DNA of 64,000 bases from Haematobia irritans (Eukaryota > Arthropoda > Insecta > Diptera > Muscidae): the NCBI RefSeq assembly GCF_050003625.1, contig NC_134398.1, forward strand, positions 110,068,171 to 110,132,170. Direction: 5' to 3'. The notes beneath the pieces are model-generated. The model made no database searches and was not told the DNA's origin. It saw nothing but the letters and a program-made list of their open reading frames with translations. Shown piece after piece: positions 34,412 through 64,000 of this stretch. Every line of letters starts with the position of its first letter. Positions within the stretch are counted from its first letter, which is position 1. The position numbers and the translations under genes are program-made.

Positions 34412-34480
34412 CAGAATTGACATAGACACAAAGAAATACACTTGTGTTTTATTTATTCTATCCAGTTCAATTCCATTACA

Positions 34481-38203: not shown

Positions 38204-38241
<38 letters not shown>

Positions 38242-39337: not shown

Positions 39338-39375
<38 letters not shown>

Positions 39376-39516: not shown

Positions 39517-39594
39517 CAAATATGGGAAACATTTAAATCTGAAGCAATCTTAAGGAAACTTCGCAAAAGTTTATTTATGATTTATCGCTCGATA

Positions 39595-39596
39595 TA
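39595..39596. repeat. TA target duplication, left of MITE
   Basis: The uninterrupted leader reads CGATATATATG. The MITE splits it so that TA flanks the insertion on both sides (second copy at 39828-39829). Confidence 0.8.
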
Positions 39597-40697: not shown

Positions 40698-42060
40698 AAA
40701 TTTGGCACGCATAGCTACAATGCTAATTATACACCCTGTGCACAATTTCAACTAAATCGAAATTTCAACTAAATCGGAGAAAAAATTGGCCTCTGTGGTC
40801 ATATGAGTGTAAATCGGGCGAAAGCTATATATGGGAGCTATATCTAAATCTGAACCGATTTCAACCAAATTTGGCACGCATAGCTACAATGCTAATTATA
40901 CTCCCTGTGCAAAATTTCAACTAAATCGGAGCAAAAAATTGGTCTCTGTGGTCATTTGAGTGTAAATCGGGCGAAAGCTATATATGGGAGCTATATCTAA
41001 ATCTGAACCGATTTCAACCAAATTTGACACGCATAGCTACAATGCTAATTCTACTCCCTGTGCAAAATTTCAGCTAAATCGGAGCAAACGATTGGCCTCT
41101 GTGGTCATTTGAGTGTAAATCGGGCGAAAGCTATATATGGGAGCTATATCTAAATCTGAACCGATTTCAACCAAATTTGACACGCATAGCTACAATGCTA
41201 ATTCTACTCCCTGTGCAAAATTTCAACTTAATCGGAGCAAAAATTGGCCTCAGTGGGCAAATGAGTGTAAATCGGGCGAAAGCTATATATGGGAGCTATA
41301 TCTAAATCTGAACCGATTTCCACCAAATTTGACACGCATAGCTATAATGCTAATTCTACTCCCTGTGCAAAATTTCAACTAAATCGGAGCAAAAAAATTG
41401 GTCTCTGTGGACAAAGGAGTGTAAATCGGGCGAAAGCTATATATGGGAGCTATATCTAAATCTGAACCGATTTCCACCAAATTTGACACGCATAGCTATA
41501 ATGCTAATTCTACGCCCTGTGCAAAATTTCAACTAAATCGGAGCAAAAAATTGGTCTCTGTGGACAAAGGTGTGTAAATCGGGCGAAAGCTATATATGGG
41601 AGCTATATCTAAATCTGAACCGATTTGGATGATATTTTGCAAGTTTTTCGAGACTCATAAAATATTTGGATGTTCGGAATTTGAGAAAGATCGGTTGATA
41701 TACACGCCAATTATGACCAGATCGGTGAAAAATATATATGGCAGCTATATCTAAATCTGAACAGATTTTTTCCAAAATCAATAGGGATCGTCTTTGAGCC
41801 GAAACAGGACCCTATACCAAATTTTAAGACAATCGGACTAAAACTGCGAGCTGTACTTTGCACACAAAAATACATCAACAGACAGACAGACGGACAGACG
41901 GACAGACAGACAGACAGACGGACATCGCTAAATCGACTCAGAATTTAATTCTAAGACGATCGGTATACTAAACGATGGGTCTCAGACTTTTCCTTCTTGG
42001 CGTTACATACAAATGCACAAACTTATTATACCCTGTACCACAGTAGTGGTGAAGGGTATA
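40698..42060 (+). repeat. satellite unit 23 (no B leader)
   Basis: The unit begins in a C monomer without a leader because of the deletion that removed the preceding hairpin. A short scrambled repeat of AAATTTCAACTAAATCG lies near 40745-40775. D starts at about 41591, (GACA)n with GACG is at about 41883-41929 and the hairpin is at 42027-42060. Confidence 0.88.
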
Positions 42061-43781
42061 AAAATATGGGAAACATTTAAATCTGGAGCAATTTTAAGAA
42101 AACTTCGCAAAAGTTTATTTATGATTTATCGCTCGATATATATACATTAGAAGTTTAGGAAAATTAGAGTCATTTTTACAACTTTTCCACTAAGCAGTGG
42201 CGATTTTACAAGGAAAATGTTGGTATTTTGTCCATTTTTGTCGAAATCCGAAAAACATATATATGGGAGCTATATCTAAATCTGAACCGATTTCAACCAA
42301 ATTTGGTACGCATAGCTACAATGCTAATTCTACTCCCTGTGCAAAATTTCAACTAAATCGGAGCAAAAAATTGGCCTCTGTGGTCATATGAGTGTAAATC
42401 GGGCGAAAGCTATATATGGGAGCTATATCTAAATCTGAACCGATTTCAACCAAATTTGGCACGCATAGCTACAATGCTAAGTATACTCCCTGTGCAAAAT
42501 TTCAACTAAATCGGAGCAAAAAATTGGCCTCTGTGGTCATTTGAGTGTAAATCGGGCGAAAGCTATATATGGGAGCTATATCTAAATCTGAACCGATTTC
42601 AACCAAATTTGACACGCATAGCTAGAATGCTAATTCTACTCCCTGTGCAAAATTTCAACTAAATCGGAGCAAAAAATTGGCCTCTGTGGGCAAATGAGTG
42701 TAAATCGGGCGAAAGCTATATATGGGAGCTATATCTAAATCTGAACCGATTTCCACCAAATTTGACACGCATAGCTATAATGCTAATTCTACTCCCTGTG
42801 CAAAATTTCAACTAAATCGGAGCAAAAAATTGGCCTCTGTGGACAAAGGAGTGTAAATCGGGCGAATGCTATATATGGGAGCTATATCTAAATCTGAACC
42901 GATTTGGATGATATTTTGCAAGTTTTTCGAGACTCATAAAATATTGGGATGTACGGAATTTGAGGAAGATCGGTTGATATACACGCCAATTATGACCAGA
43001 TCGGTGTAAAATATATATGGCAAATCTGAACCGATTTCAACCAAATTTGGCACGCATAGCAACAATGCTAATTCTACTCCCTGTGCCAAATTGCAACTAA
43101 ATCGGAGTTGAAAATTGGACTCTGTGGTCATATGAGTGTAAATCGGGCGAATGCTATATATGGGAGCTATATCTAAATCTGAACCGATTTCAACCAAATT
43201 TGGCACTCATAGCTACAATGCTCATTCTACTCCCTGTGCAAAATTTCAACTAAATCGGAGCAAAAAATTGGGCTCTGTGGGCAAATGAGTGTAAATCGGG
43301 CGAAAGCTATATATGGAAGCTATATCTAAATCTGAACCGATTTGGCTGATATTTTGCAAGTTTTTCGAGACTCATAAAATATTCGGATGTACGGAATTTG
43401 AGAAAGATCGGTTGATATACACGGCAATTATGACCAGATCGGTGAAAAATATATATGGCAGCTATATCTAAATCTGAACAGATTTTTTCCAAAATCAATA
43501 GGGATCGTCTTTGAGCCGAAACAGGACCCTATACCAAATTTTAAGACAATCGGACTAAAACTGCGAGCTGTACTTTGCACACAAAAATACATCAACAGAC
43601 AGACAGACGGACAGACAGACAGACAGACAGACCGGCAGACGGACATCGCTAAATCGACTCAGAATTTAATTCTAAGACAATCGGTATACTAAACGATGGG
43701 TCTCAGACTTTTCCTTCTTGGCGTTACATACAAATGCACAAACTTATTATACCCTGTACCACAGTAGTGGTGAAGGGTATA
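42061..43781 (+). repeat. satellite unit 24 (B1)
   Basis: The unit is 1,721 bp long, with a B1 leader, C monomers, a fused D/C monomer at about 42877-43020, D from about 43308, (GACA)n at about 43599-43645 and the hairpin at 43748-43781. Confidence 0.9.
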
Positions 43782-44908
43782 AAAATATGGGAAACATTTA
43801 AATCTGAAGCAATCTTAAGGAAACTTCGCAAAAGTTTATTTATGATTTATCGCTCGATATATATGTATTAGAAGTTTAAGAAAATTAGAGTAATTTTTTC
43901 AACTATTCGACTAAGCAGTGGCGATTTTACAAGGAAAATGTTGCTATTTTGACCATTTTTGTCGAAATCAGAAAAACATATATGTGGGAGCTATATCTAA
44001 ATCTGAACCGATTTCAACCAAATTTGGCACGCATAGCAACAATGCTAATTCTACTCCCTGTGCAAAATTCCAACTAAATCGGAGCAAAAAATTAGCCTCT
44101 GTGGTCATATGAGTGTAAATCGGGCGAAAGCTATATATGGGAGCTATATCTAAATCTGAACCGATTTCAACCAAATTTGGCACGCATAGCTACAATGCTA
44201 AGTATACTCCCGGTGCAAAATTTCAACTAAATCGGAGCAAAAAATTGGCCTCTGTGGTTAATATGAGTGTAAATCGGGCGAAAGCTATATATGGGAGCTA
44301 TATCTAAATCTGAACCGATTTCCACCAAATTTGACACGCATAGCTATAATGCTAATTCTACTCCCTGTGCAAAATTTCAACTAAATCGGAGCAAAAAATT
44401 GGCCTCTGTGGACAAAGGAGTGTAAATCGGGCGAAAGCTATATATGGGAGCTATATCTAAATCTGAACCGATTTGGATGATATTTTGCAAGTTTTTCGAG
44501 ACTCATAAAATAATGGGATGTACGGAATTTGAGGAAGATCGGTTGATATACACGCCAATTATGACCAGATCGGTGAAAAATATATATGGCAGCTATATCT
44601 AAATCTGAACCGATTTTTTCCAAAATCAATAGGGATCGTCTTTGAGCCGAAACAGGACCCCATACCAAATTTTAGGACAATCGGACTAAAACTGCGAGCT
44701 GTACTTTGCACACAAAAATACATCAACAGACAGACAGACGGACAGACGGACAGACAGACAGGCAGACGGACATCGCTAAATCGACTCAGAATTTAATTCT
44801 AAGACGATCGGTATACTAAACGATGGGTCTCAGACTTTTCCTTCTTGGCGTTACATACAAATGCACAAACTTATTATACCCTGTACCACAGTAGTGGTGA
44901 AGGGTATA
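43782..44908 (+). repeat. satellite unit 25 (B2)
   Basis: The unit is 1,127 bp long, with a B2 leader, three C monomers, D from about 44439, (GACA)n at about 44728-44769 and the hairpin at 44875-44908. Confidence 0.9.
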
Positions 44909-46927
44909 AAAATATGGGAAACATTTAAATCTGGAGCAATTTTAAGAAAACTTCGCAAAAGTTTATTTATGATTTATCGCTCGATATATATACATTAGAA
45001 GTTTAGGAAAATTAGAGTCATTTTTACAACTTTTCCACTAAGCAGTGGCGATTTTACAAGGAAAATGTTGGTATTTTGTCCATTTTTGTCGAAATCCGAA
45101 AAACATATATATGGGAGCTATATCTAAATCTGAACCGATTTCAACCAAATTAGGCACGCATAGCTACAATGCTAATTCTACTCCCTGTGCAAAATTTCAA
45201 CTAAATCGGAGCAAAAAATTGGCCTCTGTGGTCATATGAGTGTAAATCGGGCGAAAGCTATATATGGGAGCTATATCTAAATCTGAACCGATTTCAACCA
45301 AATTTGGCACGCATAGCTACAATGCTCATTCTACTCCCTGTGCAAAATTTCAACTAAATCGGAGCAAAAAATTGGCCTCTGTGGTCATTTGAGTGTAAAT
45401 CGGGCGAAAGCTATATATGGGAGCTATATCTAAATCTGAACCGATTTCAACCAAATTTGACACGCATAGCTACAATGCTAATTCTACTCCCTGTGCAAAA
45501 TTTCAACTAAATCGGAGCAAAAAATTGGCCTCTGTGGTCATTTGAGTGTAAATCGGGCGAAAGCTATATATGGGAGCTATATATAAATCTGAACCGATTT
45601 CAACCAAATTTGACACGCATAGCTACAATGCTAATTCTACTCCCTGTGCAAAATTTCAACTAAATCGGAGCAAAAAATTGGCCTCTGTGGGCAAATGAGT
45701 GTAAATCGGGCGAAAGCTATATATGGGAGCTATATCTAAATCTGAACCGATTTCCACCAAATTTGACACGCATAGCTATAATGCTAATTCTACTCCCTGT
45801 GCAAAATTTCAACTAAATCGGAGCAAAAAATTGGCCTCTGTGGACAAAGGAGTGTAAATCGGGCGAATGCTATATATGGGAGCTATATCTAAATCTGAAC
45901 CGATTTGGATGATATTTTGCAAGTTTTTCGAGACTCATAAAATATTGGGATGTACGGAATTTGAGAAAGATCGGTTGATATACACGCCAATTATGACCAG
46001 ATCGGTGAAAAATATATATGGCAAATCTGAACCGATTTCAACCAAATTTGGCACGCATAGCAACAATGCTAATTCTACTCCCTGTGCCAAATTTCAACTA
46101 AATCGGAGTTGAAAATTGGACTCTGTGGTCATATGAGTGTAAATCGGGCGAAAGCTATATATGGGAGATATATCTAAATCTGAACCGATTTCAACCAAAT
46201 TTGGCACGCATAGCAACAATGCAAATTCTACTCCCTGTGCAAAATTTCAACTAAATCGGAGTTAAAAATTGGCCTTTGTGGTCATATGAGTGTAAATCGG
46301 GCGAATGCTATATATGGGAGCTATATCTAAATCTGAACCGATTTCAACCAAATTTGGCACTCATAGCTACAATGCTCATTCTACTCCCTGTGCAAAATTT
46401 CAACTAAATCGGAGCAAAAAATTGGGCTCTGTGGGCAAATGAGTGTAAATCGGGCGAAAGCTATATATGGAAGCTATATCTAAATCTGAACCGATTTGGC
46501 TGATATTTTGCAAGTTTTTCGAGACTCATAAAATATTCGGATGTACGGAATTTGAGAAAGATCGGTTGGTATACACGGCAATTATGACCAGATCGGTGAA
46601 AAATATATATGGCAGCTATATCTAAATCTGAACAGATTTTTTCCAAAATCAATAGGGATCGTCTTTGAGCCGAAACAGGACCCTATACCAAATTTTAAGA
46701 CAATCGGACTAAAACTGCGAGCTGTACTTTGCACACAAAAATACATCAACAGACAGACAGACGGACAGACAGACAGACCGGCAGACGGACATCGCTAAAT
46801 CGACTCAGAATTTAATTCTAAGACGATCGGTATACTAAACGATGGGTCTCAGACTTTTCCTTCTTGGCGTTACATACAAATGCACAAACTTATTATACCC
46901 TGTACCACAGTAGTGGTGAAGGGTATA
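44909..46927 (+). repeat. satellite unit 26 (B1)
   Basis: The unit is 2,019 bp long, with a B1 leader, C monomers, a fused D/C monomer at about 45873-46021, D from about 46462, (GACA)n at about 46751-46790 and the hairpin at 46894-46927. Its distal half matches unit 24. Confidence 0.9.
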
Positions 46928-48188
46928 AAAATATGGGAAACATTTAAATCTGAAGCAATCTTAAGGAAACTTCGCAAAAGTTTATTTATGATTTATCGCT
47001 CGATATATATGTATTAGAAGTTTAAGAAAATTAGAGTCATTTTTTCAACTATTCGACTAAGCAGTGGCGATTTTACAAGGAACATGTTGCTATTTTGACC
47101 ATTTTTGTCGAAATCAGAAAAACATATATATGGGAGCTATATCTAAATCTGAACCGATTTCAACCAAATTTGGCACGCATAGCAACAATGCTAATTCTAC
47201 TCCCTGTGCAAAATTCCAACTAAATCGGAGCAAAAAATTAGCCTCTGTGGTCATATGAGTGTAAATCGGGCGAAAGCTATATATGGGAGCTATATCTAAA
47301 TCTGAACCGATTTCAACCAAATTTGGCACGCATAGCTACAATCCTAAGTATACTCCCTGTGCAAAATTTCAACTAAATCGGAGCAAAAAATTGGCCTCTG
47401 TGGTCATTTGAGTGTAAATCGGGCGAAAGCTATATATGGGAGCTATATCTAAATCTGAACCGATTTCAACCAAATTTGGCACGCATAGCTACAATGCTAA
47501 TTATACTCCCTGTGCAAAATTTCAACTAAATCGGAGCAAAAAATTGGCCTCTGTGGTCATTTGAGTGTAAATCGGGCGAAAGCTATATATGGGAGCTATA
47601 TCTAAATCTGAACCGTTTTCAACCAAATTTGACACGCATAGCTACAATGCTAATTCTACTCCCTGTGCAAAATTTCAACTAAATCGGAGCAAAAAATTGG
47701 CCTCTGTGGACAAAGGAGTGTAAATCGGGCGAAAGCTATATATGGGAGCTATATCTAAATCTGAACCGATTTGGATGATATTTTGCAAGTTTTTCGAGAC
47801 TCATAAAATAATGGGAATGAGGAAGATCGGTTGATATACACGCCAATTATGACCAGATCGGTGAAAAATATATATGGCAGCTATATCTAAATCTGAACCG
47901 ATTTTTTCCAAAATCAATAGGGATCGTCTTTGAGCCGAAACAGGACGCCATACCAAATTTTAGGACAATCGGACTAAAACTGCGAGCTGTACTTTGCACA
48001 CAAAAATACTTCAACAGACAGACAGACAGACGGACAGACAGACAGACGGACATCGCTAAATCGACTCAGAATTGAATTCTAAGACGATCGGTATACTAAA
48101 CGATGGGTCTCAGACTTTTCCTTCTTGGCGTTACATACAAATGCACAAACTTATTATACCCTGTACCACAGTAGTGGTGAAGGGTATA
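46928..48188 (+). repeat. satellite unit 27 (B2)
   Basis: The unit is 1,261 bp long, with a B2 leader and four C monomers. The D monomer (from about 47740) has lost about 11 bp (ATGGGAATGAGG). (GACA)n is at about 48016-48051 and the hairpin is at 48155-48188. Confidence 0.9.
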
Positions 48189-49179
48189 AAAATATGGGAA
48201 ACATTTAAATCTGGAGCAATTTTAAGAAAACTTCGCAAAAGTTTATTTATGATTATCGCTCGATATATATGTATTAGAAGTTTAGGAAAATTAGAGTCAT
48301 TTTTACAACTTTTCCACTAAGCAGTGGCGATTTTACAAGGAAAATGTTGGTATTTTGACCATTTTTGTCGAAATCAGAAAAATATATATATGGGAGCTAT
48401 ATCTAAATCTGAACCGATTTCAACCAAATTTGGCACGCATAGCTACAATGCTAATTCTACTCCCTGTGCAAAATTTCAACTAAATCGGAGCAAAAAATTG
48501 GCCTCTGTGGTCATATGAGTGTAAATCGGGCGAAAGCTATATATGGGAGCTATATCTAAATCTGAACCGATTTCCACCAAATTTGACACGCATAGCTATA
48601 ATGCTAATTCTACTCCCTGTGCAAAATTTCAACTAAATCGGAGCAAAAAATTGGCCTCTGTGGACAAAGGAGTGTAAATCGGGCGAAAGCTATATATGGG
48701 AGCTATATCTAAATCTGAACCGATTTCAACCAAATTTGACACGCATAGCTACAATGCTAATTATACTCCCTGTGCAAAATTTCAACTAAATCGGAGCAAC
48801 AAAATTGGCATCTGTGGGCAAATGAGTGTAAATGGGGCGAAAGCTATATATGGGAGCTATATCTAAATCTGAACCGATTTCCACCAAATTTGACTTCCAC
48901 CAAATCAATAGGGATCGTCTTTGAGCCGAAACAGGACCCTATACCAAATTTTAAGACAATCGGACTAAAACTGCGAGCTGTACTTTGCACACAAAAATAC
49001 ATCAACAGACAGACAGACGGACAGACAGACAGACAGGCGGACATCGCTAAATCGACTCAGAATTTAATTCTAAGACGATCGGTATACTAAACGATGGGTC
49101 TCAGACTTTTCCTTCTTGGCGTTACATACAAATGCACAAACTTATTATACCCTGTACCACAGTAGTGGTGAAGGGTATA
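48189..49179 (+). repeat. satellite unit 28 (B1, no D)
   Basis: The unit is 991 bp long. It has a B1 leader and C monomers, then the TTTGACTTCCACCAAATC junction near 48897. (GACA)n is at about 49007-49040 and the hairpin is at 49146-49179. With unit 29 it forms one B1/B2 dimer. Confidence 0.9.
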
Positions 49180-50340
49180 CAAATATGGGAAACATTTAAA
49201 TCTGAAGCAATCTTAAGGAAACTTCGCAAAAGTTTATTTATGATTTATCGCTCGATATATATGTATTAGAAGTTTAAGAAAATTAGAGTCATTTTTTCAA
49301 CTATTCGACTAAGCAGTGGCGATTTTACAAGGAAAATGTTGCTATTTTGACCATTTTTGTCGAAATCAGAAAAACATATATATGGGAGCTATATCTAAAT
49401 CTGAACCGATTTCAACCAAATTTGGCACGCATAGCAACAATGCTAATTCTACTCCCTGTGCAAAATTTCAACTAAATCGGAGCAAAAAATTAGCCTCTGT
49501 GGTCATATGAGTGTAAATCGGGCGAAAGCTATATATGGGAGCTATATCTAAATCTGAACCGATTTCAACCAAATTTGGCACGCATAGTTACAATGCTCAT
49601 TCTACTCCCTGTGCAAAATTTCAATTAAATCGGAGTAAAAGATTGGCCTCTGTGGTCATATGAGTGTAAATCGGGCGAAAGCTATAAATGGGAGCTATAT
49701 CTAAATCTGAACCGATTTCCACCAAATTTGACATGCATAGCTATAATGCTAATTCTACTCCCTGTGCAAAATTTCAACTAAATCGGAGCAAAAAATTGGC
49801 CTCTGTGGACAAAGGAGTGTAAATCGGGCGAAAGCTATATATGGGAGCTATATCTAAATCTGAACCGATTTGGTTGATATTTTGCAAGTTTTTCGAGACT
49901 CATAAAATATTTGGATGTACGGAATTTGAGGAAGATCGGTTGATATACACGCCAATTATGACCAGATAGGTGAAAAATATATATGGCAGCTATATCTAAA
50001 TCTGAACCGATTTTTTCCAAAATCAATAGGGATCGTCTTTGAGCCGAAACAGGACCCCATACCAAATTTTAATAGGGATCGTCTTTGAGCCAAAACAGGA
50101 CCCCATACCAAATTTTAGGACAATCGGACTAAAACTGCGAGCTGTACTTTGCACACAAAAATACATCAACAGATAGACAGACAGACGGACAGACAGACAG
50201 ACGGACATCGCTAAATCGACTCAGAATTTAATTCTAAGACGATCGGTATACTAAACGATGGGTCTCAGACTTTTCCTTCTTGGCGTTACATACAAATGCA
50301 CAAACTTATTATACCCTGTACCACAGTAGTGAAGGGTATA
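49180..50340 (+). repeat. satellite unit 29 (B2, 46-bp duplication)
   Basis: A B2 leader, three C monomers and D from about 49836 are followed by a 46-bp direct duplication in block A (50025-50070 and 50071-50116). (GACA)n is at about 50174-50207. The hairpin at 50310-50340 lacks 3 bp of its right arm. Confidence 0.9.
50025..50116 (+). repeat. 46-bp tandem duplication in block A
   Basis: AATAGGGATCGTCTTTGAGC begins at 50025 and again at 50071. The same duplication with the same breakpoints is present in unit 31 (52177 and 52223), so the two units descend from one duplicated parent. Confidence 0.9.
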
Positions 50341-51331
50341 AAAATATGGGAAACATTTAAATCTGGAGCAATTTTAAGAAAACTTCGCAAAAGTTTATTT
50401 ATGATTATCGCTCGATATATATGTATTAGAAGTTTAGGAAAATTAGAGTCATTTTTACAACTTTTCCACTAAGCAGTGGCGATTTTACAAGGAAAATGTT
50501 GGTATTTTGACCATTTTTGTCGAAATCAGAAAAACATATATATGGGAGCTATATCTAAATCTGAACCGATTTCAACCAAATTTGGCACGCATAGCTACAA
50601 TGCTAATTCTACTCCCTGTGCAAAATTTCAACTAAATCGGAGCAAAAAATTGGCCTCTGTGGTCATATGAGTGTAAATCGGGCGAAAGCTATATATGGGA
50701 GCTATATCTAAATCTGAACCGATTTCAACCAAATTTGGCACGCATAGCTACAATGCTAATTCTACTCCCTGTGCAAAATTTCATCTATATCGGAGCAAAC
50801 AATTGGCCTCTGTGGTCATTTGAGTGTAAATCGGGCGAAAGCTATATATGGGAGCTATATCTAATTCTGAACCGATTTCAACCAAATTTGACACGCATAG
50901 CTACAATGCTAATTATACTCCCTGTGCAAAATTTCAACTAAATCGGAGCAAAAAAATTGGCATCTGTGGGCAAATGAGTGTAAATGGGGCGAAAGCTATA
51001 TATGGGAGCTATATCTAAATCTGAACCGATTTCCACCAAATTTGACTTCCACCAAATCAATAGGGATCGTCTTTGAGCCGAAACATTACCCTATACCAAA
51101 TTTTAAGACAATCGGACTAAAACTGCGAGCTGTACTTTGCACACAAAAATACATCAACAGACAGACAGACGGACAGACAGACAGACAGACGGACATCGCT
51201 AAATCGACTCAGAATTTAATTCTAAGACGATCGGTATACTAAACGATGGGTCTCAGACTTTTCCTTCTTGGCGTTACATACAAATGCACAAACTTATTAT
51301 ACCCTGTACCACAGTAGTGGTGAAGGGTATA
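50341..51331 (+). repeat. satellite unit 30 (B1, no D)
   Basis: The unit is 991 bp long, with a B1 leader, C monomers, the TTTGACTTCCACCAAATC junction near 51049, (GACA)n at about 51159-51192 and the hairpin at 51298-51331. It is a close copy of unit 28. Confidence 0.9.
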
Positions 51332-52447
51332 CAAATATGGGAAACATTTAAATCTGAAGCAATCTTAAGGAAACTTCTCAAAAGTTTATTTATGATTTAT
51401 CGCTCGATATATATGTATTAGAAGTTTAAGAAAATTAGAGTCATTTTTTCAACTATTCGACTAAGCAGTGGCGATTTTACAAGGAAAATGTTGCTATTTT
51501 GACCATTTTTGTCGAAATCAGAAAAACATATATATGGGAGCTATATCTAAATCTGAACCGATTTCAACCAAATTTGGCACGCATAGCAACAATGCTAATT
51601 CTACTCCCTGTGCAAAATTTCAACTAAATCGGAGCAAAAAATTAGCCTCTGTGGTCATATGAGTGTAAATCGGGCGAAAGCTATATATGGGAGCTATATC
51701 TAAATCTGAACCGATTTCAACCAAATTTGGCACGCATAGCTACAATGCTAATTCTACTCCCTGTGCAAAATTTCAATTAAATCGGAGTAAAAGATTGGCC
51801 TCTGTGGTCATATGAGTGTAAATCGGGCGAAAGCTATAAATGGGAGCTATATCTAAATCTGAACCGATCTCCACCAAATTTGACATGCATAGCTATACTG
51901 CTAATTCTACTCCCTGTGCAAAATTTCAACTAAATCGGAGCAAAAAATTGGCCTCTGTGGATATAGGAGTGTAAATCGGGCGAAAGCTATATATGGGAGC
52001 TATATCTAAATCTGAACCGATTTGGATGATATTTTGCAAGTTTTTCGAGACTCATAAAATATTTGGATGTACGGAATTTGAGGAAGATCGGTTGATATAC
52101 ACGCCAATTATGACCAGATAGGTGAAAAATATATATGGCAGCTATATCTAAATCTGAACCGATTTTTTCCAAAATCAATAGGGATCGTCTTTGAGCCGAA
52201 ACAGGACCCCATACCAAATTTTAATAGGGATCGTCTTTGAGCCGAAACAGGATCCCATACCAAATTTATAGGACAATCGGACTAAAACTGCGAGCTGTAC
52301 TTTGCACACTTTGCACAAATCGACTCAGAATTTAATTCTAAGACGATCGGTATACTAAACGATGGGTCTCAGACTTTTCCTTTTTGGCGTTACATACAAA
52401 TGCACAAACTTATTATACCCTGTACCACAGTAGTGGTGAAGGGTATA
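51332..52447 (+). repeat. satellite unit 31 (B2, microsatellite lost)
   Basis: The unit is 1,116 bp long. It has a B2 leader, three C monomers, D from about 51988 and the 46-bp duplication (52177-52268). The (GACA)n microsatellite and its flanks are deleted: TTTGCACACTTTGCACAAATCG bridges the gap near 52306. The hairpin at 52414-52447 is intact. Confidence 0.9.
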
Positions 52448-53285
52448 AAAATATGGGAAACATTTAAATCTGGAGCAATTTTAAGAAAACTTCGCAAAAG
52501 TTTATTTATGATTATCGCTCGATATATATGTATTAGAAATTTAGGAAAATTAGAGTCATTTTTACAACTTTTCCACTAAGCAGTGGCGATTTTACAAGGA
52601 AAATGTTGGTATTTTGACCATTTTTGTCGAAATCAGAAAAACATATATATGGGAGCTATATCTAAATCTGAACCGATTTCAACCAAATTTGGCACGCATA
52701 GCTACAATGCTAATTCTACTACCTGTGCAAAATTTCAACTAAATCGGAGCAAAAAATTGGCCTCTGTGGTCATATGAGTGTAAATCGGGCGAAAGCTATA
52801 TATGGGAGCTATATCTAAATCTGAACCGATTTCAACCAAATTTGGCACGCATAGCTACAATGCTAATTATACTCCCTGTGCAAAATTTCAACTAAATCGG
52901 AGCAAAAAAATTGGCATCTGTGGGCAAATGAGTGTAAATGGGGCGAAAGCTATATATGGGAGCTATATCTAAATCTGAACCGATTTCCACCAAATTTGAC
53001 TTCCACCAAATCAATAGGGATCGTCTTTGAGCCGAAACAGGACCCTATACCAAATTTTAAGACAATCGGACTAAAACTGCGAGCTGTACTTTGCACACAA
53101 AAATACATCAACAGACAGACAGACGGACAGACAGACAGACAGACGGACATCGCTAAATCGACTCAGAATTTAATTCTAAGACGATCGGTATACTAAACGA
53201 TGGGTCTCAGACTTTTCCTTCTTGGCGTTACATACAAATGCACAAACTTATTATACCCTGTACCACAGTAGTGGTGAAGGGTATA
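52448..53285 (+). repeat. satellite unit 32 (B1, no D)
   Basis: The unit is 838 bp long, with a B1 leader, few C monomers, the TTTGACTTCCACCAAATC junction near 53003, (GACA)n at about 53113-53146 and the hairpin at 53252-53285. Confidence 0.9.
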
Positions 53286-54402
53286 AAAATATGGGAAATA
53301 TTTAAATCTGAAGCAATCTTAAGGAAACTTCGCAAAAGTTTATTTATGATTTATCTCTCGATATATATGTATTAGAAGTTTAAGAAAATTAGAGTCATTT
53401 TTTGAACTATTCGACTAAGCATTGACGATTTTACAAGGAAAATGTTGGAATTTTGACCATTTTTGTCGAAATCAGAAAAACATATATATGGGAGCTATAT
53501 CTAAATCTGAACCGATTTCAACCAAATTTGGCACGCATAGCAACAATGCTAATTCTACTCCCTGTGCAAAATTCCAACTAAATCGGAGCAAAAAATTAGC
53601 CTCTGTGGTCATATGAGTGTAAATCGGGCGAAAGCTATATATGGGAGCTATATCTAAATCTGAACCGATTTCAACCAAATTTGGCACGCATAACAACAAT
53701 GCAAATTCTACTCCCTGTGCAAAATTTCAACTAAATCGGAGTTAAAAATTGGCCTCTGTGGTCATATGAGTGTAAATCGGGCGAATGCTATATATGGGAG
53801 CTATATCTAAATCTGAAGCGATTTCAACCAAATTTGACACGCATAGCTATAATGCTAATTCTACTGCCTGTGCAAAATTTCAACTAAATCGGAGCAAAAA
53901 ATTGGGCTCTGTGGGCAAATGAGTGTAAATCGGGCGAAAGCTATATATGGGAGCTATACTAAATCTGAACCGATTTGGCTGATATTTTGCAAGTTTTTCG
54001 AGACTCATAAAATGTTCGGATGTACGGAATTTGAGAAAGATCGGTTGATATACACGCCAATTATGACCAGATAGGTGAAAAATATATATGGCAGCTATAT
54101 CTAAATCTGAACCGATTTTTTCCAAAATCAATAGGGATCGTCTTTGAGCCGAAACAGGACCCCATACCAAATTTTAGGACAATCGGACTAAAAGTGCGAG
54201 CTGTACTTTGCACACAAAAATACATAAACAGACAGACAGACGGACAGACAGACAGACAGACGGACATCGCTAAATCAACTCAGAATTTAATTCTAAGACG
54301 GTCGGTATACTAAACGATGGGTCTCAGACTTTTCCTTCTTGGCGTTACATACAAATGCACAAACTTATTATACCCTGTACCACAGTAGTGGTGAAGATTA
54401 TA
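53286..54402 (+). repeat. satellite unit 33 (B2)
   Basis: The unit is 1,117 bp long, with a B2 leader, three C monomers, D from about 53950 (with one base lost in GCTATACTAAATC), (GACA)n at about 54230-54263 and the hairpin at 54369-54402, whose right arm is damaged (GAAGATTATA). Confidence 0.9.
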
Positions 54403-55786
54403 AAAATATGGGAAACATTTAAATCTGAAGCAATCTTAAGGAAACTTCGCAAAAGTTTATTTATGATTTATCGCTCGATATATATGTATTAGAAGTTTAA
54501 GAAAATTAGAGTCATTTTTTCAACTATTCGACTAAGCAGTGGCGATTTTACAAGGAAAATGTTGCTATTTTGACCATTTTTGTCGAAATCAGAAAAACAT
54601 ATATATGGGAGCTATATCTAAATCTTTGGCACGCATAGCAATAATGCTAATTCTACTCCCTGTGCAAAATTTCAACTAATTTGGAGCAAAAATTGGCCTC
54701 TGTGGTCATATGAGTGTAAATCGGGCGAAAGCTATATATGGGAGCTATATCTAAATCTGAACCGATTTCAACCAAATTTGGCACGCATAGCTACAATGCT
54801 AATTATACTCCCTGTGCAAAATTTCAACTAAATCGGAGCAAAAAATTGGCCTCTGTGGTCATTTGAGTGTAAATCGGGCGAAAGCTATATATGGGAGCTA
54901 TATCTAAATCTGAACCAATTTCAACCAAATTTGACACGCATAGCTACAATGCAAGTTCTACCCCCTGTGCAAAATTTCAACTAAATCGGAGCAAAAAATT
55001 GGCCTCTGTGGTCATTTGAGTGTAAATCGGGCGAAAGCTATATATGGAAGCTATATCTAAATCTGAACCGATTTCAACCAAATTTGACACACATAGCTAC
55101 AATGCTAATTCTACTCCCTGTGCAAAATTTCAACTAAATCGGAGCAAAAAATTGGCCTCTGTGGGCCAATGAGTGTAAATCGGGCGAAAGCTATATATGG
55201 GAGCTATATCTAAATCTGAACCGATTTCCACCAAATTTGACACGCATAGCTATAATGCTGATTCTACTCCCTGTGCAAAATTTCAACTAAATCGGAGCAA
55301 AAAATTGGCCTCTGTGGACAAAGGAGTGTAAATCGGGCGAAAGCTATATATGGGAGCTATATCTAAATCTGAACCGATTTGGATGATATTTTGCAAGTTT
55401 TTCGAGACTCATAAAATATTTGGATGTACGGAATTTGAGGAAGATTGGTTGATATACACGCCAATTATGACCAGATCTGTGAAAAATATATATGGCAGCT
55501 ATATCTAAATCTGAGCCGATTTTTTCCAAAATCAATAGAGATCGTCTTTGAGCCGAAACAGGACCCCATACCAAATTTTAGGACAATCGGACTAAAAGTG
55601 CGAGCTGTACTTTGCACACAAATATACATCAACAGACAGACAGACGGACATCGCTAAATCGACTCAGAATTTAATTCTAAGACGATCGGTATACTAAACG
55701 ATGGGTCTCAGACTTTTCCTTCTTGGCGTTACATACAAATGCACAAACTTATTACACCCTGTACCACAGTAGTGGTGAAGGGTATA
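54403..55786 (+). repeat. satellite unit 34 (B2)
   Basis: The unit is 1,384 bp long. It follows another B2 unit, so the alternation ends here. The first monomer is shortened near 54626 (TAAATCTTTGGCACGC). D starts at about 55345 and the microsatellite is very short (about 55636-55651). The hairpin at 55753-55786 has the variant left arm TACACCCTG. Confidence 0.9.
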
Positions 55787-56107: not shown

Positions 56108-56376
56108 CATAGGCGGAGCCAGAAATTTTCTCTGGGGGGGGGCTATGCCCCCCCCAGACATCCTTCAGAGTTTTGTCGAAATTTCCGAAGCGATAAATTA
56201 CCCCTATTGATAAAACTATACATCCTCAATTTTATTGCGGTGTTAAAGGCAATATGCAGCAAAATCAATCAAAAACAAAAAAAACTCAATCACAAAAATT
56301 AGTTGTATCAATTAATTTTTTAATTGGCTTTGATGATTGATAATATCATTTTTTTTTGATTGAATACATTTCAATT
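56108..56376 (+). mobile_element. hAT-like element, left end only (duplicate)
   Basis: This is the duplicated left end of the hAT-like element. It begins CATAGGCGGAGCCAG and then has a G-rich/C-rich palindromic stretch around GGGGGCTATGCCCCCC. AT-rich sequence without ORF continues to the start of the nested element. It has no right end of its own because the duplication breaks off inside the nested element. Confidence 0.8.
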
Positions 56377-57474
56377 AAAAACAAGTAAGTAAAATCTAAA
56401 GTCGGGCGGAGCCGACTATATTATACCCTTCACCACTATGTAGACAAACATTTGTGTTACCATCTCAACTACTTAAAATTTGCTGGAAGCTATATAAAGG
56501 TTTGCATTTCCAGATACAAATACTTTTAATGGAAACAATTTTTTGTACTTCTACAAAAACTCTAGAATTAAAATTTAAATCGGCTAACGCCCTGGGATGA
56601 TACACAATGTTAGTAAAAAATATGGGAAATATGAAGCGAGAGAAATTTTAATGCAATTGTACAAAAGAGATTTTTAATTTTTCAGGCGATACATATGTAT
56701 TCGAGATATAGGACAATTAGAGTAATATTTACAATTTTTGCTGCTCAGCAGTGGCGATTTTACAAGGATATTGGTTAGATCTCGCCAAGATATGTGTAGG
56801 GCGACTTGGAGCCTTATTTAAAACTCATCCGTTCTGTGGAAATTTTGGCATTGCAGTGTGTAGGATATGGGGAAATCATCACAGAATTTTGTGTAAACTG
56901 TGAGAATTTTGGCCATATTTGTATTCTCTGTGGAAACTATCCAGTCAATTGGAGGAAAATCCCATTGAAAATGGGTCTAAAATATGAAACAGTCGACCAT
57001 ATTTCCCCAACTCTGGTGTACGTATATATGGGAGCTATATACAATCTGAACCGATTTTGAATAAATTTGACATGTATAGTTAGAATAATAATTCTGCTAT
57101 CTATGCGAAATTTCACGTAAATGGGAGTATAACTTTGGCCCCCCTGGTCATATGAGTGCAAATCGGACGGGAGATATATATGGGAGCCATATCTAAATCT
57201 AAATCGATTTCAACCAAATTTGGCACAATTACCTATACTACTAAACGTACTCCTTGTGCGAAATTTGAAGCAAATCACGGCAAAACCCTGGATTTTGAGG
57301 CCATATAAGTTCAATCGGACGAAAGATATATATGGGAGCTATATCTAAATCTGAACCGATTTCAATCAAGTGTACCAAGCATTGGTAGAATGCCAATTCT
57401 ACCCTCTGTGCAAAATTTCATGAAGATCGGTAGTAAATTTTGGGCTCTGTGGTCATATGAGTCTAAATCGGACG
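56377..57474 (+). mobile_element. Helentron/DINE-like element, 5' part (duplicate)
   Basis: This is the 5' portion of the element described at 58523-60084. It begins AAAAACAAGTAAG, has a small AGTCGG...CCGACT dyad, the inverted-repeat arm TATACCCTTCACCAC at 56422-56436, a leader homologous to satellite block B, and three diverged monomers from about 57026. It switches to ordinary satellite at about 57475. Confidence 0.75.
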
Positions 57475-57933
57475 AAAGCTATATATGGGAGCTATATCTC
57501 AATCTGAACCGATTTGGATGATATTTTGCAAGTTTTTCGAGACTCATAAAATATTTGGATGTACGGAATTTGAGGAAGATCGGTTGATATACACGCCAAT
57601 TATGACCAGATCGGTGAAAAATATATATGGCAGCTATATCTAAATCTGAACAGATTTTTTCCAAAATCAATAGGGATCGTCTGTGAGCCGAAACAGGACC
57701 TCATACCAAATTTTAGGACAATCGGACTAAAACTGCGAGCTGTACTTTGCACACAAAAATACATCAACAGACAGACAGACGGACAGACAGACGGACATCG
57801 CTAAATCGACTCAGAATTTAATTCTAAGACGATCGGTATACTAAACGATGGGTCTCAGACTTTTCCTTCTTGGCGTTACATACAAATGCACAAACTTATT
57901 ACACCCTGTACCACAGTAGTGGTGAAGGGTATA
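57475..57933 (+). repeat. satellite D/A block between duplicate copies
   Basis: An ordinary D monomer, block A, (GACA)n at about 57769-57798 and the hairpin (57900-57933, TACACCC variant) are present. Block A shares GTCTGTGAGCC and GGACCTCATACC with the unit at 61.2-61.6 kb, while the hairpin variant matches the one at 55753. The piece is therefore a mosaic of left- and right-flank satellite. Confidence 0.85.
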
Positions 57934-58254
57934 AATATGCGAAACATTTAAATCTGAAGCAATTTTAAGGAAACTTCGCAAAAGTTTATTTATGATTTAT
58001 CGCTCGATATATATGTATTAGAAGTTTAGGAAAATTAGAGTCATTTTTACAACTTTTCGAGTAAGCAGTGGCGATTTTACAAGGAAAATGTTGGTATTTT
58101 GACCATTTTTGTCGAAATCAGAAAAACATATATATGGGAGCTATATCTAAATCTGAACCGATTTCAACCAAATTAGGCACGCATAGCAACAATGCTAATT
58201 CTACTCCCTGTGCAAAATTTCAACTAAATCGGAGCAAAAAATTAGCCTCTGTGG
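57934..58254 (+). repeat. satellite unit 36, left part (B3), cut by hAT-like insertion
   Basis: A B3 leader and a partial C monomer end at CTCTGTGG (58247-58254), the left target duplication of the hAT-like element. The interrupted monomer resumes at 60845 with the same eight bases. Confidence 0.9.
58247..58254. repeat. 8-bp target duplication CTCTGTGG, left
   Basis: The bases are identical to 60845-60852 and fall at the same place in the satellite monomer (GCCTCTGTGGTCAT). This marks the insertion of the hAT-like element. Confidence 0.88.
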
Positions 58255-58567
58255 CATAGGCGGAGCCAGAAATTTTCTCTGGGGGGGGCTATGCCCCCCC
58301 CAGACATCCTTCAAAATTTTGTCGAAATTTCCGAAGCGATAAATTACCCCTATTGATAAAACTATACATCCTCAATTTTATTGCGGTGTTAAAGGCAATA
58401 TGCAGCAAAATCAATCAAAAACAAAAAAAACTCAATCACAAAAATTAGTTGTATCAATTAATTTTTTAATTGGCTTTGATGATTGATACTATCATTTTTT
58501 TTTGATTGAATACATTTCAATTAAAAACAAGTAAGTAAAATCTAAAGTCGGGCGGAGCCGACTATAT

Positions 58568-58582
58568 TATACCCTTCACCAC
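58568..58582. repeat. 15-bp inverted-repeat arm, left
   Basis: TATACCCTTCACCAC is a perfect reverse complement of 60069-60083. The same arm occurs at 56422-56436 in the duplicate. None of the head-to-tail satellite units has it at its left end. Confidence 0.9.
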
Positions 58583-60049
58583 TATGTAGACAAACATTTG
58601 TGTTACCATCTCAACTACTTAAAATTTGCTGGAAGCTATATAAAGGTTTGCATTTCCAGATACAAATACTTTTAATGGAAACAATTTTTTGTACTTCTAC
58701 AAAAACTCTAGAATTAAAATTTAAATCGGCTAACGCCCTGGGATGATACACAATGTTAGTAAAAAATATGGGAAATATGAAGCGAGAGAAATTTTAATGC
58801 AATTGTACAAAAGAGATTTTTAATTTTTCAGGCGATACATATGTATTCGAGATATAGGACAATTAGAGTAATATTTACAATTTTTGCTGCTCAGCAGTGG
58901 CGATTTTACAAGGATATTGGTTAGATCTCGCCAAGATATGTGTAGGGCGACTTGGAGCCTTATTTAAAACTCATCCGTTCTGTGGAAATTTTGGCATTGC
59001 AGTGTGTAGGATATGGGGAAATCATCACAGAATTTTGTGTAAACTGTGAGAATTTTGGCCATATTTGTATTCTCTGTGGAAACTATCCAGTCAATTGGAG
59101 GAAAATCCCATTGAAAATGGGTCTAAAATATGAAACAGTCGACCATATTTCCCCAACTCTGGTGTACGTATATATGGGAGCTATATACAATCTGAACCGA
59201 TTTTGAATAAATTTGACATGTATAGTTAGAATAATAATTCTGCTATCTATGCGAAATTTCACGTAAATGGGAGTATAACTTTGGCCCCCCTGGTCATATG
59301 AGTGCAAATCGGACGGGAGATATATATGGGAGCCATATCTAAATCTGAATCGATTTCAACCAAATTTGGCACAATTACCTATACTACTAAACGTACTCCT
59401 TGTGCGAAATTTGAAGCAAATCACGGCAAAACCCTGGATTTTGAGGCCATATAAGTTCAATCGGACGAAAGATATATATGGGAGCTATATCTAAATCTGA
59501 ACCGATTTCAATCAAGTGTACCAAGCATTGGTAGAATGCCAATTCTACCCTCTGTGCAAAATTTCATGAAGATCGGTAGTAAATTTTGGGCTCTGTGGTC
59601 ATATGAGTCTAAATCGGACGAAAGATATATATGGGAGCTATATCTAAATCTGAACCGATTTGGCTGATATTTTGCAAGATTTGCGAGATTCATTAAATAT
59701 TTGGATGTACGGTATTTCAAGAAAATTGGTTGATAAACACGCTAACTATGACCACATCGTAGATAATTATATATGGCAGCTATATCTAAATCTGAACCGA
59801 TTTTTTCCAAAACCAATAGCAATTGTCTCTGTCTCAAGAAACGGCCCTATGCCAAATTTGAGGACGATCGGACTTAAATTGCGAGCTGTACTTTGTGCAC
59901 AAAATTACATATACAGACAGACGGACGGACAGACAGACAGACGGACATCGCTAAATCGACTCAGATTTTAATTCTTACCCGATCGGTATACTAAAAGATG
60001 GGTCTATGACCACTATTTCTTGGCGTTATATACAAATGCACAAACTCAT

Positions 60050-60083
60050 TATACCCTGTACCACAGTAGTGGTGAAGGGTATA
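60050..60083. repeat. terminal hairpin of the nested element
   Basis: The stem TATACCCTGTACCAC / GTGGTGAAGGGTATA has a loop of AGTA and two mismatched pairs. The sequence is the same as the hairpin that ends nearly all satellite units, here followed by unrelated hAT sequence. This identifies the hairpin as the element's true 3' end. Confidence 0.88.
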
Positions 60084-60084
60084 A

Positions 60085-60844
60085 TTAATTAGATCAATTA
60101 ATTTCATGGTTGAAGACAAAAAATATTTTATTGTGTGTGGGAGCCGGTTCCACGACACCGCTATAAATAATCAAATAGCAACTTACCATTATTTAATATA
60201 ACAAAAAATAAAAGCATTGCTTTAAGTATGTGTTTGAAAAATATTGTTTGTAATTTATTTTTAATTCAAGACAACAAACATATAATTTTTAAATTTTATT
60301 TAAAATGTGTGTTTTAAAACAGGACTAGAAATCATAAAGCAAAACATAAACTTAATATATTCATCGTGTATAAAAAATACTAAGAATAAAAAATTAAATA
60401 AAAGGCAAAAAATAAATTGAATATTATAAAACGTCTATGTTCGATTAGTTTTTAAAAATTCTCTGAGAACAGAATACAACGAAGCAACTGTCGAGAGCAG
60501 CGGTGCCAACTCTGTGGATTTTTCGTGATTTTGACGATTTTAGATGGTAAATTGGGCATGTGACGATTTATGATTTTAATCAACGTAGTTATAAATTGAC
60601 TATTTTTGAAAATGTGCGTCTCAAGTTTCCTTTTAGTGTTTTTATTACGTGTTTTTAGTTGTAATGTAAATATCAATACTAAAAAATATGCTTAACATAC
60701 TCTCTCTGCCACAATCTTAATTGGATTAAACACATCGCAAAGCTTGAATTAAAATATAAATCAACTGTAGCTTTGATTATTCTGGGGGGGGGGGGGGCAA
60801 GAACTATTCTGGGGGGGGGGGCTATGCCCCTAGCTACGCCAATG
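60085..60844. other. hAT-like element, right interior and end
   Basis: This AT-rich non-satellite stretch has no convincing ORF; the longest frame, 74 codons on the minus strand at 60452-60676, shows no recognisable motif. It ends with two G-runs (about 60785-60797 and 60811-60821), GCTATGCCCC and TAGCTACGCCAATG. Confidence 0.75.
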
Positions 60845-61643
60845 CTCTGTGGTCATATGAGTGTAAATCGGGCGAAAGCTATATATGGGAGCTATATCTA
60901 AATCTGAACCGATTTCAACCAAATTTGGCACGCATAGCTACAATGCTCATTCTACTCCCTGTGCAAAATTTCAATTAAATCGGAGTAAAAGATTGGCCTC
61001 TGTGGTCATATGAGTGTAAATCGGGCGAAAGCTATAAATGGGAGCTATATCTAAATCTGAACCGATTTCCACCAAATTTGACACGCATAGCTATAATGCT
61101 AATTCTACTCCCTGTGCAAAATTTCAACTAAATCGGAGCAAAAAATTGGCCTCTGTGGACAAAGGAGTGTAAATCGGGCGAAAGCTATATATGGGAGCTA
61201 TATCTAAATCTGAACCGATTTGGATGATATTTTGCAAGCTTTTCGAGACTCATAAAATATTTGGATGTACGGAATTTGAGGAAGATCGGTTGATATACAC
61301 GCCAATTATGACCAGATCGGTGAAAAATATATATGGCAGCTATATCTAAATCTGAACAGATTTTTTCCAAAATCAATAGGGATCGTCTGTGAGCCGAAAC
61401 AGGACCTCATACCAAATTTTAGGACAATCGGACTAAAACTGCGAGCTGTACTTTGCACACAAAAATACATCAACAGACAGACAGACGGACAGACAGACAG
61501 ACGGACATCGCTAAATCGACTCAGAATTTAATTCTAAGACGATCGGTATACTAAACGATGGGCCTCAGACTTTTCCTTCTTGGCGTTACATACAAATGCA
61601 CAAACTTATTATACCCTGTACCACAGTAGTGGTGAAGGGTATA
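60845..61643 (+). repeat. satellite unit 36, right part
   Basis: The interrupted C monomer resumes with CTCTGTGG (60845-60852, the right target duplication). More C monomers, D from about 61186, (GACA)n at about 61473-61504 and the hairpin at 61610-61643 follow. Confidence 0.9.
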
Positions 61644-63351
61644 CAAATATAGGAAACATTTAAATCTGAAGCAATCTTAAGGAAACTTCGCAAAAGTTTA
61701 TTTATGATTTATCGCTCGATATATATGTATTAGAAGTTTAAGAAAATTAGAGTCATTTTTTCAACTATTCGACTAAGCAGTGGCGATTTTACAAGGAAAA
61801 TGTTGCAATTTTGACCATTTTTGTCGAAATCAGAAAAACATATATATGGGAGCTATATCTAAATCTGAACCGATTTCAACCAAATTTGGCACGCATAGCA
61901 ACAATGCTAATTCTACTCCCTGTGCGGAATTTCAACTAAATCGGAGCAAAAAATTAGCCTCTGTGGTCATATGAGTGTAAATCGGGCGAAAGCTATATAT
62001 GGGAGCTATATCTAAATCTGAACCGATTTCAACCAAATTTGGCACGCATAGCTACAATGCTCATTCTACTCCCTGTGCAAAATTTCAATTAAATCGGAGT
62101 AAAAGATTGGCCTCTGTGGTCATATGAGTGTAAATCGGGCGAAAGCTATATATGGGAGCTATATCTAAATCTGAACCGATTTCCACCAAATTTGACACGC
62201 ATAGCTATAATGCTAATTCTACTCCCTGTGCAAAATTTCAACTAAATCGGAGCAAGAAATTGGCCTCTGTGGACAAAGGAGTGTAAATCGGGCGAAAGCT
62301 ATATATGGGAGCTATATCTAAATCTGAACCGATTTCAACCAAATTTGGCACGCATAGCTACAATGCTAATTATACTCCTTGTGCGAAATTTCAACTAAAT
62401 CGGAGCAAAAAATTGGCCTCTGTGGTCATATGAGTGTAAATCGGGCGAAAGCTATATATGGGAGCTATATCTAAATCTGAACCGATTTCAACCAAATTTG
62501 GCACGCATAGCTACAATGCTAATTATACTCCCTGTGCAAAATTTCAACTAAATCGGAGCAAAAAATTGGCCTCTGTGGTCATTTGAGTGTAAATCGGGCG
62601 AAAGCTATATATGGGAGCTATATCTAAATCTGAACCGATTTCAACCAAATTTGACACGCATAGCTACAATGCTAATTCTACCCCCTGTGTAAAATTTCAA
62701 CTAAATCGGAGCAAAAAATTGGCTTCTGTGGTCATTTGAGTGTAAATCGGGCGAAAGCTATATATGGGAGCTATATCTAAATCTGAACCGATTTCAACCA
62801 AATTTGACACGCATAGCTACAATGCAAATTCTACTCCCTGTGCAAAATTTCAAATAAATCGGAGCAAAAAATTGGCCTCTGTGGGCAAATGAGTGTAAAT
62901 CGGGCGAAAGCTATATATGGGAGCTATATCTAAATCTGAACCGATTTCCACCAAATTTGACACGCATAGCTACAATGCTAATTCTACTCCCTGTGCAAAA
63001 TTTCAACTAAATCGGAGCAAAAAATTGGCCTCTGTGGTCATTTGAGTGTAAATCGGGCGAAAGCTATATATGGGAGCTATATCTAAATCTGAACCGATTT
63101 GGATGATATTTTGCAAGTTTTTCGAGACTCATAAAATATTTGGATGTACGGAATTTGAGGAAGATCGGTTGATATACACGCCAATTATGACCAGATCGGT
63201 GAAAAATATATATGGCAGCTATATCTAAATCTGAACCGATTTTTTCCAAAATCAATAGGGATCGTCTTTGAGCCGAAACAGGACCCCATACCAAATTTTA
63301 GGACAATCGGACTAAAACTGCGAGCTGTACTTTGCACACAAAAATACATCA

Positions 63352-63382
<31 letters not shown>

Positions 63383-63530
63383 GGCAGACGGACATCGCTA
63401 AATCGACTCAGAATTTAATTCTAAGACGATCGGTATACTAAACGATGGGTCTCAGACTTTTCCTTCTTGGCGTTACATACAAATGCACAAACTTATTATA
63501 CCCTGTACCACAGTAGTGGTGAAGGGTATA
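61644..63530 (+). repeat. satellite unit 37 (B2)
   Basis: The unit is 1,887 bp long, with a B2 leader, about eight C monomers, D from about 63065, (GACA)n at about 63353-63392 and the hairpin at 63497-63530. Confidence 0.9.
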
Positions 63531-64000
63531 AAAATATGGGAAACATTTAAATCTGAAGCAATCTTAAGGAAACTTCGCAAAAGTTTATTTATGATTTATC
63601 GCTCGATATATATGTATTAGAAGTTTAGGAAAATTAGAGTCATTTTTACAACTTTTCCACTAAGCAGTGGCGATTTTACAAGGAAAATGTTGGTATTTTG
63701 ACCATTTTTGTCGAAATCAGAAAAACATATATATGGGAGCTATATCTAAATCTGAACCGATTTCAACCAAATTTGGCACGCATAGCAACAATGCTAATTC
63801 TACTCCCTGTGCAAAATTTCAACTAAATCGGAGCAAAAAATTAGCCTCTGTGGTCATATGAGTGTAAATCGGGCGAAAGCTTTATATGGGAGCTATATCT
63901 AAATCTGAACCGATTTCAACCAAATTTGGCACGCATAGCTACAATGCTCATTCTACTCCCTGTGCAAAATTTCAATTAAATCGGAGTAAAAGATTGGCCT
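63531..64000 (+). repeat. satellite unit 38 (B2, right-truncated by window edge)
   Basis: A B2-type start of leader (CTGAAGCAATCTTAAGG) leads into C monomers that run off the window end. The later part of the leader reads CTTTTCCACTAAGC as in B1, so this leader is a B2/B1 mosaic. Confidence 0.85.

What the first reader, a model, noticed from the sequence alone, without database searches (positions are those of the whole stretch)
58523..60084. Ancestor-like full-length element next to the satellite it appears to have founded
The nested element has every block of the satellite unit in the same order (leader, monomers, D, GACA microsatellite, hairpin). It also has a 5' end missing from the satellite: the AACAAGTAAG start, a dyad and an inverted-repeat arm. 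Its three monomers differ much from each other, whereas satellite monomers are nearly uniform. This suggests that a dispersed element came first and that the tandem satellite was amplified and homogenised from it.
Basis: partly seen in the sequence, partly recalled or inferred. Interest (0 to 1): 0.85.

Follow-up and report, generated by a model that had tools for sequence, protein, structure and literature searches.

The report
Jumping gene that inserts into itself

Summary
The element at 58526-60084 (E2) is real. On the minus strand it reads as a DINE-1/mini-me-type non-autonomous Helentron; the "5' end missing from the satellite" is its canonical 3' end. Dispersed full-length copies exist, but E2 is not the founder. 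In 25 of 30 fetched copies both ends of a hAT-like carrier transposon are visible, and all 25 have an exact 8-bp target duplication: E2 came in as hAT cargo after the array existed. It is 66-85% like the satellite and falls outside it in trees.

The parent is a sister lineage. The array's left edge, 13 kb left of the window, holds a unit with an intact 3' end whose inner block B is identical to four window units. The unit joint matches the right half of an insertion of one element into an A/T tract in block B of another. Such joints are common genome-wide: 2472 left and 4107 right, against 63 inverted. In 8 of 8 nested loci examined, joining the flanks restores block B. Insertion into a polar tract gives head-to-tail pairs. 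Spread from the outer 5' end to the first 3' end, then unequal exchange, would give the array; these steps are inferred. Counts include later copies, and no denominator was obtained.

The parts
58526..60084 (-). E2, full-length DINE-1-like non-autonomous Helentron (canonical 5' end at 60084, 3' end at 58526)
58526..58563 (-). canonical 3' end with stem-loop AGTCGG/CCGACT (6-bp stem)
   Evidence: + strand fold: 42 of 200 shuffles fold as well; - strand: 49 of 200
58566..58584 (-). 3' subterminal inverted repeat, 19 bp, perfect partner at 60067-60085
58585..58762 (-). outer block B; in the window found only here and in E1
58761..58766 (-). A/T tract of block B (A6 on + strand): homologous position of the self-insertion site and of the satellite unit joint
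58763..58921 (-). inner block B ('leader'), homologous to satellite from the first base after the joint
58914..59170 (-). spacer without satellite counterpart
59175..59631 (-). three divergent central monomers (152, 152, 153 bp)
59632..59907 (-). block A2 with 142-bp variant monomer ('D'); right limit approximate
59913..60044 (-). GTCY-type (GACA) microsatellite and core region; right limit approximate
60048..60085 (-). canonical 5' end: subTIR plus its partial inverted repeat (the 'hairpin')
   Evidence: 0 of 200 shuffles fold as well
58255..60844 (.). hAT-like composite transposon carrying E2 as cargo
58247..58254 (.). 8-bp target site duplication CTCTGTGG (left)
60845..60852 (.). 8-bp target site duplication CTCTGTGG (right)
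56380..57934 (-). E1, chimera: E2-type up to 57472, satellite-type from 57479
56108..56379 (.). duplicated left part of the hAT-like element
1..55786 (-). satellite array (units = 5' end to inner block B), interrupted by a LINE at about 9.9-15.85 kb
60853..64000 (-). satellite array, continuation right of the hAT

Best explanation
The satellite descends from a DINE-1-like Helentron lineage with a much-used self-insertion site. Helentrons insert into T-rich DNA without a target duplication, and block B of this family carries a T-tract (A6 in E2, A8 in the edge unit, on the + strand). One element inserts into that tract of another (shown at 8 loci). The tract is polar, so the inserted copy lies in the same direction as its host (direct joints far outnumber inverted ones). 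The pair then has two 5' ends in tandem. If rolling-circle transposition starts at the outer 5' end and stops at the first, inner 3' end, it yields a mobile dimer with two 5' ends and one 3' end; repeats of this and unequal exchange lengthen it into an array of [5' end - core - GACA - monomers - inner block B] units with one 3' end at the edge (inferred). E2 is a divergent relative that sits in a hAT-like transposon, was carried into the array by it, and has since recombined with the satellite to give E1.
For: Array edge: L067:7230 has an intact 3' end and block B running through GTTAGTAAAAAAAATATGGG; its inner block B is identical to 4 window units over 166 columns; the 10 kb between L067 and the window hold seven 5' ends in the same direction and no 3' end. 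Left joints outerB|3' end: 2472 genome-wide, reversed-pattern control 0. Right joints 5' end|innerB: 4107, control 0, with varying A number. Inverted left joints: 63, control 2. In 8 of 8 loci classed as nested, the joined flanks match intact block B (from 194 of 225 to 153 of 157 identical) and the inserts run from 270 to 1470 bp. At least four different 5' ends are joined at the same place in the first 30 loci. 3' ends at unique flanks beside such joints: L067, L072, L074, L090, L094. E2 as hAT cargo: 25 of 25, 24 distinct duplications. Exchange: E1 switch at 57473-57478; exact duplications up to 1564 bp inside the array.
Against: Host copies are alike, so the two flanks of a nested locus need not come from one host copy. 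The window array's own edge has no host outer block B, so the nesting step for this array is inferred from its joint. The rolling-circle joint of 3' to 5' end was not counted. The 3' stem-loop is not stronger than shuffles. The 30 joint loci are the first in the listing (contig C1), not a random sample; only 12 of them show a 3' end.
Confidence: 0.72

Rival explanations
1. Rolling-circle replication of a template that lost its 3' terminator made a concatemer of truncated elements, which inserted as an array (model of Xiong et al. 2016, as told in PMC12628747).
For: Many 5' ends with a single 3' end at the left edge, and an intact TATACCC 5' end at 34 of 35 window joints.
Against: The joint falls in the longest T-tract of E2's block B (inner positions of tracts of 4 or more make up 5.5% of it). 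The complementary left joint is widespread too, and flanks close to an intact block B in 8 of 8 nested loci; a concatemer does not predict these.
Confidence: 0.15
2. One reading: E2 or its close dispersed kin founded the satellite, which was then homogenised.
For: Same block order, complete ends, dispersed copies.
Against: E2 is hAT cargo at 25 of 25 testable loci, only 66-85% like the satellite, outside satellite plus dispersed copies in the tree, with monomers further from the common node than the satellite consensus.
Confidence: 0.04
3. The satellite came first and dispersed copies are pieces of it that were mobilised.
For: Satellite consensus lies near the root of the monomer star; multi-unit pieces are dispersed.
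Against: Dispersed elements carry the 3' end, subTIR and outer block B that satellite units lack, and several 5'-end types join the same site.
Confidence: 0.06

Closest known systems
DINE-1 / mini-me elements, non-autonomous Helentrons (PMC2374699, PMC4067079; Helitron2_Cv of Calliphora, PMC3630058; passages seen)
   Same: 5' subTIR with partial inverted repeat, GTCY microsatellite and core in block A, central repeats, block B, 3' subTIR then stem-loop, T-rich insertion without duplication, no coding
   Different: Here block B is itself a much-used insertion site for the family, and units lacking the 3' end build a long array
DINE-TR1 and its 154-bp repeats in Drosophila (PMC9957191, PMC6922343; passages seen)
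   Same: About 150-bp central repeats of a DINE that expand into satellite-like arrays
   Different: There the central repeats alone are described as expanding; here the unit is the element from its 5' end to inner block B, with 2-14 monomers between successive hairpins in stretches without inserts. Sequence homology could not be tested: no letters at hand
Plant centromeric Helitron arrays (Xiong 2016, seen only through the review PMC12628747)
   Same: Many 5' ends and a single 3' end
   Different: Fly Helentron; the joint is explained by self-insertion at a T-tract
TE dimers by insertion-site preference (McGurk and Barbash, seen only through PMC12628747)
   Same: Repeated insertion at one site gives tandem pairs that can grow
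   Different: The site lies inside the element, so the unit is a truncated element and the direction follows the tract

Membership tests
DINE-1-like Helentron (HINE) | subterminal inverted repeats of at least 11-13 bp | tested here: met
   19 of 19 bp
DINE-1-like Helentron (HINE) | partial inverted repeat beside the 5' subTIR | tested here: met
   fold of 60035-60095 minus, z -4.62, 0 of 200 shuffles
DINE-1-like Helentron (HINE) | GTCY microsatellite in block A, then central repeats, then block B | tested here: met
   order against PMC2374699 section 6; homology of the core itself to DINE-1 was not computed, no published letters held
DINE-1-like Helentron (HINE) | stem-loop downstream of 3' subTIR | tested here: inconclusive
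   6-bp stem at the right place; 42 of 200 shuffles fold as well
DINE-1-like Helentron (HINE) | insertion in T-rich sequence without target duplication | tested here: met
   8 of 8 nested loci: TTAGT with 3-4 A, insert, AAAATATGGG, against an intact A8 tract at the array edge
DINE-1-like Helentron (HINE) | no coding capacity | tested here: met
   longest listed ORF in E2 103 aa; that ORF has no protein match at E 0.001
DINE-1-like Helentron (HINE) | autonomous Rep/helicase partner with the same ends | not tested
   no search made
DINE-TR1 | central repeats of about 150 bp homologous to the Drosophila ones | not testable with these tools
   length fits (153 bp) but no published letters were held
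hAT transposon (carrier) | 8-bp target site duplication | tested here: met
   25 of 25 copies with both ends visible, of 30 fetched
hAT transposon (carrier) | short terminal inverted repeats | tested here: met
   CATAGGCGGAGCCAG / CATTGGCGTAGCTAG, 12 of 15
hAT transposon (carrier) | hAT transposase | not tested
   no autonomous copy sought
Helitron array with many 5' ends and one 3' end | 5' end in each unit, single 3' end at the edge | tested here: met
   (left edge to window; right edge not reached)

The most novel reading that the evidence does not exclude
A Helentron family carries an internal, polar T-tract that makes it its own preferred target. Self-insertion there forces head-to-tail pairs, and stopping at the first 3' end turns pairs into mobile multi-5'-end elements, so satellite seeding is a built-in by-product of its target preference across the whole genome.
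Probability: 0.5. Interest if true: 0.75.

Novelty: new variant of a known kind. Interest (0 to 1): 0.62.

Why it matters
How dispersed transposons turn into tandem satellites is an old question with several drawn models and few caught intermediates. Here proposed intermediates lie in one genome: both insertion joints in thousands of places, nested pairs and multi-5'-end copies with one 3' end at the loci examined, and an array of about 77 kb from its left edge to the end of the window. Each step can be counted and dated. The case also warns that a full-length copy beside a satellite need not be its ancestor: it can be a cousin delivered by another transposon.

Tried and rejected
Rejected: E2 as founder. 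Rejected: divergence between E2 monomers as a sign of ancestry. Rejected: independent Helentron dispersal of the fetched E2 copies (one search read the minus-strand loci in the wrong direction and was redone). Led nowhere: pattern scans of genome contigs and viral contigs (the 36 loci gave only matches of 19-29 bases, best E 0.002); phages and plasmids (no match); Rfam on 55000-62000 (none); protein search with one ORF of E2 (none); motif letters in papers (none). A BLAST self-search with long words gave an empty list by its settings and was replaced by an exact-repeat search. Not obtained: counts of intact block B, of all 3' ends and of the 3'|5' joint (search machine unavailable).

Papers: PMC2374699 (passages, section 6 part 1), PMC4067079, PMC3630058, PMC9957191, PMC6922343, PMC3833285 (passages), PMC12628747 (passages, section 6 part 1). 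Xiong 2016, McGurk and Barbash, and Dias 2015 were not seen; they are cited through these. That a Helentron self-insertion site as satellite seed is not in print rests only on searches (listings of titles and abstract starts) in an open-access library.

Full report
What is there. The window is C2:110068171-110132170 of a 1.17-Gb genome in 181 contigs. The window lies inside a satellite array with inserts. The 5'-terminal hairpin occurs 36 times, E1 and E2 included, in one direction only. Between successive hairpins there are 2 to 14 monomers of 153 bp, leaving out the stretches with inserts.

The element. E2 (58526-60084) has a 19-bp perfect inverted repeat near both ends, a GACA microsatellite, a core, central repeats and no long reading frame. 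On the minus strand the order is 5' subTIR with partial inverted repeat, core, (CCGT)(CTGT)n, A2, central repeats, block B, 3' subTIR, stem-loop, 3' end. That is the order published for DINE-1 (PMC2374699 section 6; compare Helitron2_Cv of Calliphora). The stem-loop is in the right place, but 42 of 200 shuffles fold as well.

E2 compared with the satellite. Block A is 85% alike, monomers 77-81% (means), inner block B 66%. The inner block B homology is beyond chance (0 of 1000 Markov-random sequences) and begins at the satellite joint. E2 has a 257-bp spacer that the satellite lacks. Its monomers are 67-74% alike, satellite monomers 95% (n=175). In a four-branch estimate the satellite consensus lies 0.03 from the common node and E2's monomers 0.13-0.21; it was the shortest branch in 499 of 500 bootstraps, and single satellite monomers have a median of 0.055 (range 0.028-0.128, n=175). 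E2 is thus full-length but not ancestor-like in sequence.

E1. A near-identical copy of the left 1.1 kb of E2 lies at 56380, with the same hAT left flank. It switches to satellite sequence between 57472 and 57479, at the start of the conserved monomer motif. This shows exchange between element and satellite, unless the assembly is at fault. The array also holds exact duplications up to 1564 bp.

How E2 spread. The genome search scored 40 of 7070 candidates and gave 71 matches; 30 loci were fetched, the window's E2 and E1 among them. After orientation, 28 of 30 have the same left flank and 28 of 30 the same right flank, which are those of a hAT-like element. All 25 with both hAT ends visible have an exact 8-bp target duplication, 24 different ones. 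So one Helentron insertion into a hAT-like element was copied around by the hAT. In the window the duplication is CTCTGTGG in a satellite monomer: E2 arrived in an existing array.

The parent lineage. L067, left of the window, holds the array edge. At 7230 there is a 3' end in unique flank, then outer block B, then GTTAGTAAAAAAAATATGGG and inner block B without a break, then block A and the first joint. Its inner block B is identical to four window units. The 10 kb between L067 and the window (L099) hold seven 5' ends in the same direction and no 3' end. So from its left edge to the window this array has many 5' ends and one 3' end. The right edge was not reached: of the right side only 10 kb were fetched (L068).

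The joint. Satellite units join as CCCATATTTT|TATACCC on the canonical strand (23 of 35 window joints exactly so). The exact joint of 32 bases occurs 1075 times in the genome, control 0, mostly dispersed in the 100 places listed. A looser form occurs 4107 times, control 0; 30 of the 100 listed have the window's four-A form and the others fewer or more A or changed letters. In the first 30 loci at least four different 5' ends are joined to the same place.

Self-insertion. Of 15 3' ends found in the 30 joint loci, 8 (in 8 loci) are preceded by outer block B up to TTAGTAAA or TTAGTAAAA. Joining the two flanks restores block B, from 194 of 225 to 153 of 157 positions identical to the edge unit, with inserts of 270 to 1470 bp. 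The left joint occurs 2472 times, control 0; the inverted arrangement 63 times, control 2. A neighbouring array in the other direction (L067 minus) shows the same nested sign, two 3' ends 248 bp apart. Insertion in T-rich DNA without duplication is the published habit of these elements (PMC4067079; PMC2374699); what is striking is the number at one internal tract and the direction bias. All counts include copies made after the insertion, and the number of intact tracts is not known.

From pair to array. Of those 15 3' ends, 7 have unique flanks: three (L071, L080, L086) lie outward of a nested one, as a host's own end should, and four (L072, L074, L090, L094) are the only 3' end seen beside the joint. 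These four and the window's own array fit transposition from the outer 5' end to the first 3' end met, or loss of the rest by unequal exchange. This step is inferred. In the other 18 loci no 3' end was found within the 1.5 kb fetched on each side. Further growth by unequal exchange is supported by E1 and by the internal duplications.

In a tree of 81 inner block B sequences (35 window, 35 dispersed, 10 edge, E2) the window units fall among dispersed copies (13 changes of label; bootstrap range 10-13) and E2 lies outside on a long branch. Dispersed rows were chosen by an exact joint pattern, so they lean towards the satellite, the root was placed on E2, and 44 of 60 inner branches are weakly supported. 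A tree of block A alone also separates E2 from the satellite and puts E1's right half among satellite units.

Known and new. DINE-1 structure, central-repeat satellites (DINE-TR1), Helitron arrays with many 5' ends, and TE dimers by site preference are all in print. I found no report of a Helentron with an internal self-insertion site that seeds truncated tandem units in the searches listed under Tried and rejected. I rate this a new variant of a known kind.

Noticed in passing
window 9900-15850: A LINE with reverse transcriptase (and, by its letters and relatives, endonuclease and RNase H) sits in the satellite. It contains an exact 951-bp repeat (11103-12053 again 948 bp on), which is either very recent or an assembly fault.
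   Followed up: partly
window 28819-30382 and 31638-33201: 1564-bp exact duplication inside the array, the longest found; others of 1287 and 1264 bp mark recent multi-unit copying.
   Followed up: partly
window 50025-50117 and 52177-52267: A 46-bp tandem duplication in block A of two satellite units that share it.
   Followed up: no
L067 1-4440: A second array of the same satellite in the opposite direction, its 3' ends facing that of the window's array, with other DNA in between.
   Followed up: partly
L047-L066: A second class of the hAT-carried Helentron, 1715 bp long in most copies and with about one more monomer; the many near-equal scores suggest a recent burst of the hAT composite.
   Followed up: no
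L071:1238-1507, L077:1224-1507: Very short inserted elements (270-284 bp) that still have a 5' and a 3' end, nested at the same T-tract.
   Followed up: no
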